A stretch of DNA of 64,000 nucleotides from positions 62,001-126,000 of the forward strand of contig JADBYZ010000013.1 in assembly GCA_020402745.1 (NCBI GenBank), given 5' to 3'. Position 1 is the stretch's first letter. Each line of letters starts with the position of its first letter. Below, in pieces: positions 3,146-6,545 of the stretch. Under the pieces are notes generated by a model. That model was given only the letters and a program-made list of their open reading frames with translations. It made no database searches and was not told where the DNA came from. This DNA is from Phenylobacterium sp. (GTDB lineage Bacteria > Pseudomonadota > Alphaproteobacteria > Caulobacterales > Caulobacteraceae). The position numbers and the translations under genes were made by a program.

Positions 3146-4645
3146 ATGCTGGCCAGCCTGGGGGTGGCGGCGAGGCTGGCGGCGGCGGGCTGGCGCCTGG
3201 CCCGCGCCGACGCCCTGCTGCCCCGGGAGCTGAGGGCTCTCTACCCGCCGGCGCTCCATCGGATTTCCCGGCTGGCCGGGCTGCTGGCCGGACCCGCCGC
3301 CCGGCGCGGCCGCCCCGGCGAGCGCCTGGCCCGATGCCTGGAGGGCATGGGTCCGGTGGCGATCAAGCTGGGCCAGCTCTTGTCCACCCGCGCCGACATC
3401 TTCGGGGCCGAGTTCGCCCAGGACCTGGCCCGGCTGAAGGACAGGCTGGAGCCCTTTCCTACAGAGACGGCCCTGAAGGAGATCGCCGCCAGCCTGGGTC
3501 GCCCGGCCGAAGACCTCTTCGCCGAGTTCGGACCGCCCGTCGCCGCGGCCTCCCTGGCCCAGGCCCACCCGGCCCGGCTGAAGGACGGACGCAGGGTCGC
3601 GGTCAAGGTCCTGAGGCCCGGGATCGAGCGCCGGGTCGAGGCCGATGCCCGGGTCATGGGCCTGGCGGCGGGACTGGCCGAGCGGTTCGCCCCAGACGCC
3701 AAGCGCCTCGAGCCCCGCACCCTCGCCGCCTCGGTGATCGAGTCCGTCCGCCGGGAGCTGGACCTGCGGCTGGAGGCGGCCGGGGCCGACGAGCTGGGGG
3801 CGATCATGGCCCGGGACGGCTACATGTCCGCACCGGCGGTGGTCTGGGATGGGGTTGGGCGCCGGGTCCTGACCCTGGAGTGGGCCAGGGGGATGCCGCT
3901 TTCCGATCCCGCCAGCCTGGTGGCGGACGGCGTCGACAGGCAGGCCCTGGCGACAGGGCTGATCCGCGCCTTCCTGGCCCAGGCCCTGGACCACGGCGTC
4001 TTTCACGCCGACCTCCACGAGGGCAATCTCTTTGTCTCCGCCCCTGACCGGATCGAGGCGGTGGACTTCGGCATTGTCGGCCGGCTGGGGCCCGAGCAGA
4101 GGCGCTACCTGGCCGAGATCCTCTGGGGCTTCCTGCAGCGCGATTACGAACGGGTGGCCCGCGTCCACTTCGAGGCCGGTTACGTCCCCGCCCGCCACGC
4201 GGTGGGGGACTTCGCCCAGGCCCTCCGCGCCGTCGGCGAGCCGATCTTCGGCCGGACGGCCCGGGACGTGTCCATGAGCCGGGTCCTGATCCAGCTCTTT
4301 GAGATCACCGGCCAGTTTGACATGCACCTGCGGCCGGAGCTGGTCCTCCTGCAGAAGACCATGATGACCGCCGAGGGGGTCGCACGGTCGATCTGGCCCG
4401 ACCTCGACATCTGGACGGCGGCCGATCCGGTGGTACGTCGATGGATGACCCGGGAGCTGTCGCCCGCCGCCCGCCTCACCCGGCTGGGCGAGCAGGCCGG
4501 ACGCATCCTGTCCCGCCTGTCGGCCCTGGCCGATCCGCCGCCGCCTTGCCCGCCGCCGCGAGGCCCCAGAGCCGCCGTCATCCTGGCGGGGAGCGCCCTG
4601 GCGGTGGCCCTGGCGGCCCTCATTCTGGCCGCCTCAGCCCTCTGA
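3146..4645 (+). CDS. ubiB: UbiB/ADCK-family atypical kinase for ubiquinone synthesis
   Basis: This 499-residue member of the UbiB (ABC1/ADCK) protein-kinase-like family supports ubiquinone biosynthesis as a membrane-associated ATPase. The KxGQ signature appears in [14 protein letters not shown] (about 72-85), the Ala-rich loop in AAASLAQAH, and the catalytic segments in DLHEGNLFV and VDFGIVG. The C-terminus is a hydrophobic helix followed by the stop codon, fitting the membrane anchor of this family. The ATG at 3146 directly follows ubiE. The 3' end overlaps the convergent lipoprotein gene by 12 bp. Confidence 0.94.
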
Positions 4646-5221
4646 GGCGCGGTCGCTCCCGGCCCGGGCGGAGCGCGCCTGGGTTTCCCGCGCCTTCTGG
4701 GTCTCCCAGTATGCGCCGCCCTGGTCGGGGTGGAAGAAGGCCCGAGGTTGTCCCTCCCGGCTGGCCACCGCGAAGGTGTTGGACGCCGGATGATAGATCA
4801 GGACGTCGCCGTTCCGCCGGGTCAGCCGCTGGGCGCCCTTCGGCGGGTCATCGATGAAGGTCCGCGCCTTGCGGACATAGGCCTCAAGGCTGGAGGCGCC
4901 GAAGCTTTCGCCATTCCGCGCGAAGGCGCGCTGGGCGTTCTCTTCAGCCGAACCCCGGCGGCTGGACGTCCAGAGCGGACGACCATCCAGGAGGGGCGCC
5001 GGGGCCTCGGCGCGTTCGCCGGACCGGCCGCCGTCATAACGGTTGTTCCTCTCAGACGTATCGGCCGGCGCCGCCGGCGAATAGGCGGTGTCGGCGGCGG
5101 CGGAGGCGGAGGCGCCATCCGCCCGGACGGCGGAGGGGCGCTCGCAGCCAGCGAGGGATAAGGCCAGGGACAGGGTCCCCAGAAGCAGGACGACAGGGGT
5201 GCTGATGGACCGGACGGTCAT
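4634..5221 (-). CDS. Lipoprotein with toxin-like C-terminal domain, candidate SOS gene
   Basis: The predicted protein has 195 residues. The start at 5221 is chosen because GGGAG precedes it at normal spacing; an in-frame start 12 codons upstream is less likely. Residues 5-22 form a signal peptide ending in the lipobox LAGC with Cys26, and Glu rather than Asp follows, which favours the outer membrane. Residues 27-85 are Ala/Pro/Ser/Arg-rich linker. Residues 88-176 form a compact domain with NGDVLIYHP, NTFAVASREG, AFFHPDQGG and YWETQ, a pattern resembling C-terminal RNase toxin domains of the BECR group; that assignment is inferred by eye. A LexA-type box lies 31 bp upstream. No immunity gene is evident. 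It could instead be a periplasmic protein of unrelated function. Confidence 0.75.
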   Translation of the reverse strand: MTVRSISTPVVLLLGTLSLALSLAGCERPSAVRADGASASAAADTAYSPAAPADTSERNNRYDGGRSGERAEAPAPLLDGRPLWTSSRRGSAEENAQRAFARNGESFGASSLEAYVRKARTFIDDPPKGAQRLTRRNGDVLIYHPASNTFAVASREGQPRAFFHPDQGGAYWETQKARETQARSARAGSDRASEG

Positions 5222-5251
5222 TGTGGTCTCCCATTGCGCCCGCCCAGGCCG

Positions 5252-5266
5252 GAACAAATTAGGAAC
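5252..5266 (-). promoter_or_regulatory. Candidate SOS (LexA) box, GTTC-N7-GTTC
   Basis: On the minus strand the site reads GTTC CTAATTT GTTC, an exact match to the alphaproteobacterial LexA motif GTTC-N7-GTTC with an AT-rich spacer. It is 31 bp upstream of the lipoprotein start (5221) and about 70 bp upstream of the divergent coaBC start. About one such match per 64 kb is expected by chance at this GC content, but most would fall inside genes. CoaBC is not a known SOS target, so the lipoprotein is the more likely regulated gene. Confidence 0.55.
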
Positions 5267-5336
5267 AACTTGTCCGGTTTGTCGAGTCCCGATGTTTTGG
5301 CGTAAGAGGCGGGGCGTTGGTGGAGGCGCCGGGATC

Positions 5337-6545
5337 GTGTCGGACAGACGAGTGCTACTGATCGTGGGCGGCGGAATTGCGGCCTATAAGTGTCTGGAGC
5401 TTGTCCGCCTGCTGCGCGGACAGGGGATCGCCGTGCGTCCGGTCCTGACCCAGGCGGGCGCCCAGTTCGTGACCCCCCTCTCCCTGGCCGCCCTGTGCGA
5501 GGACAAGGTTCACACCGACCTCTTCTCCCTGACCGACGAGGCCGAGATGGGGCATATCCGCCTGTCCCGGTCGGCGGACCTCATCGTCGTCGCGCCGGCG
5601 ACCGCTGACCTGATGGCGCGGGCGGCGGCGGGCCTGGCCAATGACCTGGCGACGACACTTCTCCTGGCCACCGACACCCCGGTGATGATGGTCCCGGCCA
5701 TGAACGTGCGCATGTGGACCCATCCGGCGACCCAGAGGAACGTGAAGACCCTGCAGTCGGACGGCGTACGCCTGGTCGGCCCGGAGGTGGGCGACATGGC
5801 CTGCGGCGAGACGGGGCCGGGCCGTATGGCCGAGCCCGCGGCGATCTGCACCGCCATCCTGGAGGCCCTGTCAGGGACCCCGGAGCGCCCGCTGGCGGGT
5901 CGTCGGGCCCTGGTGACCGCTGGCCCCACCGCCGAGCCTGTTGATCCCGTCCGTGTGCTGACGAACCGCTCCAGCGGCAAGCAGGGCTTCGCCATCGCCG
6001 GCGCCCTCGCCGCCCTCGGCGCCGAGGTGACCCTGGTGGCCGGCCCGGTGACTGAACCTACGCCCCCCGGGGTCCAACGGGTGGACGTCGAGACGGCGCG
6101 GGAGATGCTGGCCGCCTGCGAGGCCGCCCTGCCCGCCGACATCGCCGTCTGCGTCGCCGCCGTGGCCGACTGGCGCCCGGCGGAGGTCGCCTCGGGCAAG
6201 ACGAAGAAGGTCGCAGGGGCGCCGCCGCCCGAGATCCGGCTGGTGGAGAACCCCGACATCCTCGCCACCCTGTCCCGCAGCCCGGACCGCCCGACCCTGG
6301 TCATTGGCTTCGCCGCCGAGACGGAAACGGTCGAGGACCACGCCCGGGCCAAGCTGGCGCGCAAGGGCTGCGACTGGATCGTCGCCAATGACGTATCCCG
6401 GCCCGGAGTCATGGGCGGGACCGAGAACACGGTCTCCATCGTCACCCGCGGGGGGATCGAGCGCTGGGAAGAGGCGCCCAAGGCCGAGGTCGCCCGCCGC
6501 CTCGCCAGCCGGATCGCCGCCGCCCTTGCCGGAGGCGCCGCATGA
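5337..6545 (+). CDS. coaBC: Bifunctional phosphopantothenoylcysteine decarboxylase/synthetase
   Basis: This 402-residue fusion enzyme carries out two steps of coenzyme A synthesis. The N-terminal flavoprotein domain (CoaC) has GGGIAAYK, the His-containing [10 protein letters not shown], the PAMNxxMW motif and the ACGE cysteine. The C-terminal domain (CoaB) has [10 protein letters not shown] and NRSSGKQG. The GTG at 5337 is preferred because TGGAGG lies about ten bases upstream and the protein length then matches the family; an ATG at 5292 would add 15 non-conserved residues. The stop overlaps the dut start as ATGA. Confidence 0.95.

What the first reader, a model, noticed from the sequence alone, without database searches (positions are those of the whole stretch)
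5221..5337. LexA-type SOS box in front of a lipoprotein gene
GTTC-N7-GTTC occurs 31 bp upstream of the lipoprotein start at 5221, in a 115-bp divergent region shared with coaBC. About one such match is expected by chance in the whole window, but few would fall in a promoter. An SOS-controlled, envelope-exported protein is unusual: most SOS genes encode cytoplasmic DNA-repair or division-control proteins. In Caulobacter an SOS-induced endonuclease (BapE) drives an apoptosis-like response; whether this protein is related is untested.
Basis: partly seen in the sequence, partly recalled or inferred. Interest (0 to 1): 0.72.

Follow-up and report, generated by a model that had tools for sequence, protein, structure and literature searches.

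The report
SOS-controlled lipoprotein with tamed toxin domain
A DNA-damage switch conserved across a bacterial family sits in front of a gene for a membrane-anchored protein whose main domain descends from a toxin that bacteria use against each other, which points to a little-explored envelope side of the DNA-damage response.

Summary
GTTCCTAATTTGTTC lies at 5252-5266 (minus strand), 30 bp before the lipoprotein ATG. In the window alone it is no better than chance (1 found, 1.04 expected). Comparison settles it: an exact box lies upstream of 94 of 130 family orthologues read, against 3 of 130 for the reversed motif; 92 of 130 against a mean of 0.8 in resampled sequence. The genome has such boxes before lexA, recA, ssb, ruvC and uvrA.

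New here: the C-terminal domain is homologous (profile E = 1e-27) to PDB 8EY4, a toxin domain found at the ends of CDI and RHS proteins and followed by a CPCC-type small gene in 8 of 8 outside loci read. Only 3 of 130 lipoprotein loci have that neighbour. A His present in 13 of 13 aligned outside relatives is Asn or Asp in 101 of 130 lipoproteins.

Best reading: a LexA-repressed lipoprotein carrying a domesticated toxin domain. LexA binding, induction and molecular activity are not shown. No link to BapE was found. The C. crescentus orthologue is most likely CCNA_03826; whether published SOS lists already hold it could not be checked.

The parts
5252..5266 (-). LexA box GTTCCTAATTTGTTC
   Evidence: conserved upstream of 94 of 130 orthologues
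5280..5285 (-). -35-like element TCGACA (inferred); C[TG][CG]GAC lies within 40 nt 5' of the box in 68 of 81 loci with the box in gene orientation, 8 of 243 control windows
   Evidence: no consensus sigma-70 promoter was called there
5284..5288 (-). GANTC (CcrM) site beside the promoter
   Evidence: GANTC within 30 nt 5' of the box in 42 of 81 loci
4634..5221 (-). lipoprotein gene, 195 aa
5144..5221 (-). signal peptide and lipobox LAGC, lipidated Cys26 (inferred)
   Evidence: Cys invariant in alignment A1 (65 sequences); lipobox-like pattern in 128 of 130
4697..4978 (-). toxin-derived C-terminal domain, about residues 82-175
4913..4915 (-). codon of Asn103, at the position of the His of outside relatives

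Best explanation
The box is a real LexA operator. In undamaged cells LexA sits on the core promoter of the lipoprotein gene; after DNA damage RecA-stimulated self-cleavage of LexA frees it. The product is exported and lipid-anchored, probably facing the periplasm. Its globular end is a domesticated polymorphic-toxin domain that elsewhere comes with a CPCC-type cysteine-rich partner, presumably its immunity protein; most Caulobacteraceae have neither the partner next door nor the His that is constant in the outside relatives aligned. I think the protein works in the cell's own envelope during the SOS response, most likely by binding, or weakly cutting, nucleic acid or another target in the periplasm, and is no longer a potent killer toxin. 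Shown: the box and its conservation, the lipobox, the homology, the missing partner gene, the changed residue. Inferred: LexA binding, induction, membrane sorting, and the molecular activity (I give the nucleic-acid role about one chance in three).
For: Box conservation far above two controls, with 36 different sequences among 81 gene-oriented boxes and an inverted form in g3, g4, g7 and g9 (13 loci). Boxes before lexA, recA, ssb, ruvC, uvrA, a YifB gene and radC in the same genome. The box stays in 4 of the 6 loci in which coaBC was not found next door. A -35-like element stands at fixed distances from it. In C. crescentus the third-highest hypomethylated GANTC of a genome survey lies where the GANTC beside this box is expected, so a protein occupies the promoter. 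Lipobox pattern in 128 of 130. Homology to PDB 8EY4 at E = 1e-27 and to RHS, hemagglutinin-repeat and CdiA C-termini. CPCC-type frame behind the domain in 8 of 8 outside loci but beside only 3 of 130 lipoproteins. His in 13 of 13 aligned outside relatives, Asn or Asp in 101 of 130 lipoproteins.
Against: No binding or expression data were seen for this gene. 36 of 130 orthologues lack an exact box, all 11 of g14 among them. 16 of 130 lipoproteins keep the His, 5 of them with a box; and the three loci that keep the CPCC neighbour have Asn, Asn and Asp, so loss of the His and loss of the partner do not go hand in hand. Two remnant copies outside the family (L194, L196; broken, left out of the count) also lack the His. 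Whether the His is catalytic is not known. The fold was not predicted.
Confidence: 0.6

Rival explanations
1. It is still a working toxin: an SOS-timed, lipid-anchored effector used on neighbours or on the producer itself (colicin-like timing, SitA-like format), with protection provided in another way.
For: The domain is a toxin domain elsewhere; most other signature residues are kept; 2 genera keep a CPCC neighbour; colicins are SOS-controlled (recalled).
Against: Present in 189 of 199 family genomes at one place next to coaBC (124 of 130 loci) with one domain type, unlike polymorphic toxins; no CPCC gene next door in 127 of 130; the window genome has no PF14206 match; the His is changed in most.
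Confidence: 0.15
2. An envelope checkpoint protein: the domain has become a pure protein-binding module that slows division or wall growth after damage, as SidA does by another route.
For: SOS control and membrane anchoring fit; SOS division inhibitors are known in Caulobacter (passages).
Against: No sequence or genetic link to division was seen; nothing tested here speaks to it.
Confidence: 0.15
3. The box serves coaBC, not the lipoprotein.
For: Shared 115-bp gap; coaBC is divergent in 124 of 130 loci.
Against: 4 of the 6 loci without coaBC next door still have the box (in L100 it is 73 bp away and less convincing); the box keeps a near-constant distance to the lipoprotein start (21-44 bp in 61 of 81 gene-oriented cases).
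Confidence: 0.05
4. The box is a chance match.
For: About one match is expected per window, and genome-wide there are 60 sites against 40 for the reversed pattern.
Against: 94 of 130 orthologues against 3 of 130.
Confidence: 0.01

Closest known systems
LexA/SOS regulon of Caulobacter crescentus (47 genes by the criteria of PMC12700426; section 6 read)
   Same: Same operator GTTC-N7-GTTC in the promoter of a gene of the same bacterial family; same repressor type.
   Different: An exported lipoprotein with a toxin-derived domain; whether CCNA_03826 is among the 47 could not be read.
C-terminal toxin domain of PDB 8EY4 ('PT-VENN domain-containing protein') and its RHS and CdiA relatives
   Same: Homologous domain over its whole length.
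   Different: Those sit at the end of large secreted carriers (where annotated) with a CPCC-type gene behind; here a small lipoprotein, usually without that gene and with Asn or Asp for His.
SitA lipoprotein toxins of myxobacteria (recalled)
   Same: Lipoprotein carrier plus a toxin-type C-terminal domain.
   Different: SitA proteins are polymorphic, paired with SitI immunity and passed by outer-membrane exchange (recalled); here one domain type, a fixed locus, mostly no partner gene, SOS control.
Colicin operons (recalled)
   Same: LexA control of a protein with a nuclease-toxin-like domain.
   Different: No immunity gene next to it in the window, chromosomal and family-wide, membrane-anchored.
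SidA and BapE of Caulobacter
   Same: SOS-induced proteins beyond plain repair (passages).
   Different: No relative of this lipoprotein was found around the bapE promoter of G130; SidA was not compared.

Membership tests
Alphaproteobacterial LexA regulon | GTTC-N7-GTTC operator in the promoter | tested here: met
Alphaproteobacterial LexA regulon | Operator conserved in orthologues | tested here: met
   94 of 130 exact, control 3 of 130
Alphaproteobacterial LexA regulon | Genome has LexA and RecA with the same boxes | tested here: met
Alphaproteobacterial LexA regulon | LexA binds, and DNA damage induces through RecA | not testable with these tools
   supplementary tables and ChIP data were not available
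Bacterial lipoprotein | Signal peptide with lipobox Cys | tested here: met
   pattern in 128 of 130
Bacterial lipoprotein | Lipidation and membrane location | not testable with these tools
   -
CPCC-partnered CDI/RHS toxin (8EY4 type) | Homologous domain | tested here: met
   E = 1e-27
CPCC-partnered CDI/RHS toxin (8EY4 type) | Large secreted carrier protein | tested here: not met
   195-aa protein
CPCC-partnered CDI/RHS toxin (8EY4 type) | CPCC-type gene directly behind | tested here: not met
   none in the window genome; beside 3 of 130 orthologues
CPCC-partnered CDI/RHS toxin (8EY4 type) | His of the [KR]H[GS] motif | tested here: not met
   Asn103 in the window protein
CPCC-partnered CDI/RHS toxin (8EY4 type) | Toxic nuclease activity | not testable with these tools
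   activity of the 8EY4 toxin itself was not found in the library
BapE | Gene behind the published bapE promoter | tested here: not met
   other contig in G130, no match of the profile to the frames around it
SitA-type lipoprotein toxin (recalled) | Immunity gene next door and interchangeable toxin domains | tested here: not met
SitA-type lipoprotein toxin (recalled) | Outer-membrane exchange proteins in the genome | not tested

The most novel reading that the evidence does not exclude
A family-wide, mostly vertically inherited SOS effector made from a tamed interbacterial toxin domain and tethered in the cell's own periplasm: damaged cells deploy a toxin fold on their envelope as part of their own stress response (a growth brake, a guard against incoming DNA or phage, or a last-resort self-directed effector), with g14 (no box, His kept) and g4/g9 (CPCC gene kept) as possible survivors of earlier states.
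Probability: 0.4. Interest if true: 0.78.

Novelty: new variant of a known kind. Interest (0 to 1): 0.62.

Why it matters
SOS genes are mostly known as cytoplasmic repair and division-control genes. A conserved LexA-controlled lipoprotein built on a polymorphic-toxin domain would show a chromosome taming a weapon for its own damage response, and it can be tested at once in a model organism (CCNA_03826). The work also describes a toxin domain that matched no Pfam or NCBIfam model in the members tried and proposes CPCC proteins as its immunity partners.

Tried and rejected
Chance match: rejected by conservation. Box for coaBC: unlikely. BapE: not supported. Pfam and NCBIfam with the protein and with 65 orthologues gave scattered weak hits, each in at most 6 of 65 members, none taken as a family. 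In PHROGs a 'portal protein' model matches 51 of 65 members, best E 1.4e-6; for the window protein the match is to the C-terminal end of the model; not followed. Structure prediction was off, so no fold comparison. Immunity gene behind the window gene: none seen; the ubiB frame runs in from the other side and overlaps the end. CPCC genes elsewhere: 14 of 199 family genomes have a PF14206 match; among the 15 loci returned the domain lies beside it in three. The own-genome search for PF14206 found nothing, with the tool's warning that its 14 control genomes gave nothing either; one search shows that the search does find the family. Order: of 249 genomes 51 of the window's family match, and 5 of other families match marginally (E 3.6e-4 to 6.7e-4), four mainly in the N-terminal part; the fifth (G353) covers part of the domain and was not followed. 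Class: of 385 genomes 9 outside the family match, one of them (G718) marginally and N-terminally. A second copy in the window genome: none, three weak matches only (E 0.002 to 0.04). The regex counts were crude and were replaced; only the orientation by genus is used. The tree is the quick method with many weak forks, and its counts of changes (9 for presence, 10 with orientation) carry no shuffle comparison. Papers: PMC12700426 (abstract, section 6, passages); PMC9086364 (abstract, first part of section 14); PMC5172544 (section 7, passages); passages only of PMC5869019, PMC12907096, PMC12340889, PMC13189344, PMC3482391, PMC13384398, PMC6237742, PMC4211646, PMC1839093, PMC11005374 and PMC9731502. 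Three key papers (SOS regulon 2008, checkpoint 2011, BapE 2012) are not held. That I saw nothing in print on this gene as an SOS lipoprotein, or on CPCC as immunity, rests on searches of an open-licence library; there was no paper with 8EY4.

Full report
What is there. On the minus strand, 30 bp before the ATG (5221) of a 195-aa protein, lies GTTCCTAATTTGTTC at 5252-5266, in a 115-bp gap shared with the divergent coaBC gene. It is the only exact GTTC-N7-GTTC in the window and about one is expected by chance. The whole genome (2.87 Mb, 46 contigs) has 60 sites against 40 for the reversed pattern, so many sites could be chance and the motif alone proves nothing. Close relatives of the gene are in records titled Phenylobacterium.

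The genome has an ordinary SOS system. I read the surroundings of 50 of the 60 sites. Boxes lie before frames whose first 63-90 residues NCBIfam names as lexA, recA, ssb, ruvC, uvrA, a YifB-family gene and radC (7 of 8 tried). An imuA-like frame, the eighth, was named by eye only.

The box is conserved. Orthologues occur in 189 of 199 genomes of the family; I read 130 of these loci. An exact box, in either orientation, lies upstream in 94 of 130, the reversed control motif in 3 of 130. In a fixed stretch (-150 to +20) it is 92 of 130, against a mean of 0.8 and at most 5 in 200 rounds of order-1 resampling. The 81 boxes in gene orientation have 36 different sequences, so the spacer varies while the half-sites stay. 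In g3, g4, g7 and g9 the box is inverted (13 loci) and lies 47-58 bp from the start; elsewhere it is 21-44 bp in 61 of 81 cases, the outliers being partly starts that my script placed wrongly. No exact box was found in 36 of 130: all read members of g14 (11), g2 (5), g10 (3), g12 (3), g17 (2) and g11 (1), and some of g20 (3 of 5), g22 (3 of 26), g21 (2 of 9), g3 (2 of 11) and g1 (1 of 38); in 6 of the 36 the best forward site has one mismatch. On the protein tree presence needs 9 changes. coaBC is divergent in 124 of 130 loci; 4 of the other 6 still have the box. A -35-like C[TG][CG]GAC lies within 40 nt 5' of the box in 68 of 81 against 8 of 243 control windows; with a usual spacer the -10 would fall in the box in this window, so LexA would cover the core promoter (inference). 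A strict sigma-70 scan found no promoter.

Occupancy evidence from C. crescentus. A table in PMC5869019 (passage) gives CCNA_03826 at 3991771-3992325 (minus, 'conserved hypothetical protein') with CCNA_03825 overlapping it by 4 bp. Genome G077 has the same layout: 184-aa protein, next frame at -4 and 120 aa long, divergent from coaBC. I therefore take CCNA_03826 as the orthologue; the NA1000 sequence itself was not read. In G077 the box is 38 bp from the ATG with GANTC motifs starting 12 and 7 bp before it. In a genome-wide survey of hypomethylated GANTC sites the third-highest score is at 3992382-3992384, between CCNA_03826 and CCNA_03827, not a MucR target and not marked as persistently unmethylated (PMC5172544, section 7). 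That is 57-59 bp before the start, exactly the GANTC 7 bp from the box if the spacing is that of G077. LexA is not mentioned in that paper's main text. So something occupies this promoter in growing cells; LexA is the obvious candidate, RNA polymerase another (inference).

The protein. A lipobox-like pattern is found in 128 of 130, with Asp after the Cys in 88 of the 128 and Glu in 17, the window protein among them. Asp there favours the inner membrane in E. coli (recalled). After a variable linker comes a conserved domain of about 90 residues. Pfam and NCBIfam do not name it. A profile of 65 orthologues finds PDB chain 8EY4_A, 'PT-VENN domain-containing protein', at E = 1e-27 over 81 profile positions. 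The window's domain alone finds 38 plasmid records, among them RHS, hemagglutinin-repeat and CdiA proteins, and one phage record. So it is a polymorphic-toxin domain. Its activity was not found in print. Many characterised CDI toxins are BECR-fold tRNases (PMC9086364, section 14), but the fold of this domain was not established here.

The partner gene. I read 8 of those 39 records (two Rhizobium, two Pantoea, Variovorax, Paenibacillus, Lactococcus, a phage). In 8 of 8 a small Cys-rich CPCC-type frame follows the domain directly (by motif). Of five such frames tested, the g4 one included, four match PF14206; the Paenibacillus one does not. I propose it as the immunity gene (inference). Beside the lipoprotein it is present in g4 (2 loci, overlapping) and g9 (1 locus, directly behind), 3 of 130. 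The window genome has no PF14206 match (the tool's control genomes have none either, but 14 of 199 family genomes do).

The changed residue. In an alignment with 6 toxin domains and 7 exported relatives from outside the family, a His in the motif [KR]H[GS] is present in 13 of 13, but in 16 of 130 lipoproteins; 86 have Asn and 15 Asp. Among the 94 with a box 5 have His. The window protein has Asn there, and Ala where 13 of 13 outside relatives have Thr. All 11 g14 proteins, which lack the box, keep the His. Against a simple story: the three loci with a CPCC neighbour have Asn, Asn and Asp; two broken outside copies that I left out (L194, L196) also lack the His; and the link between box and residue is confounded by descent.

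Spread. In the order no convincing member was found outside the family, with one partial marginal hit not followed. In the class 8 genomes of other families carry the domain. Several are small proteins with a signal-peptide-like or membrane segment and the His; a Cys-rich frame follows in L248, L254 and L255 and was not seen in L249-L252. None of the nine such loci showed an exact LexA box in the stretch scanned.

Verdict. Regulation and architecture are well supported; binding, induction, location and activity are not shown. The published SOS tables could not be opened, so LexA control of CCNA_03826 may already be listed; the toxin-domain origin and the missing partner and His are what I did not find described in the searches named. 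BapE appears to be a different gene.

Noticed in passing
L193-L200 (seven plasmid records, one phage record): A toxin domain that Pfam and NCBIfam did not name in the members tried is followed by a CPCC-type Cys-rich frame in 8 of 8 loci: a probable toxin/immunity pair.
   Followed up: partly
L248, L254, L255, L249-L252: Small stand-alone proteins with the domain and a signal-peptide-like or membrane segment in other Alphaproteobacteria, with (first three) or without (last four) a Cys-rich frame behind.
   Followed up: partly
window 5284-5288; L082 upstream of the box: A GANTC site beside the LexA box; in C. crescentus the matching site is the third-highest hypomethylated GANTC of a genome survey.
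   Followed up: partly
L082, L085, L044, L075, L079, L102: In several Caulobacter-like genomes a small conserved frame of about 104-120 codons follows the lipoprotein gene (the CCNA_03825 equivalent in L082); it was not identified.
   Followed up: no
alignment A1 against phrog_15528: 51 of 65 lipoproteins match a phage 'portal protein' model, for the window protein at its C-terminal end: perhaps a toxin-like extension on some portal proteins.
   Followed up: no
L017 and L176 (window genome): LexA-type boxes also lie before a YifB/ComM-type gene and radC.
   Followed up: no
L258 (G130): Some way behind the bapE-like promoter, on the same strand, a frame starts with a signal-peptide-like stretch and looks like an endonuclease/exonuclease/phosphatase-type protein (by eye); whether it is bapE was not settled.
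   Followed up: no
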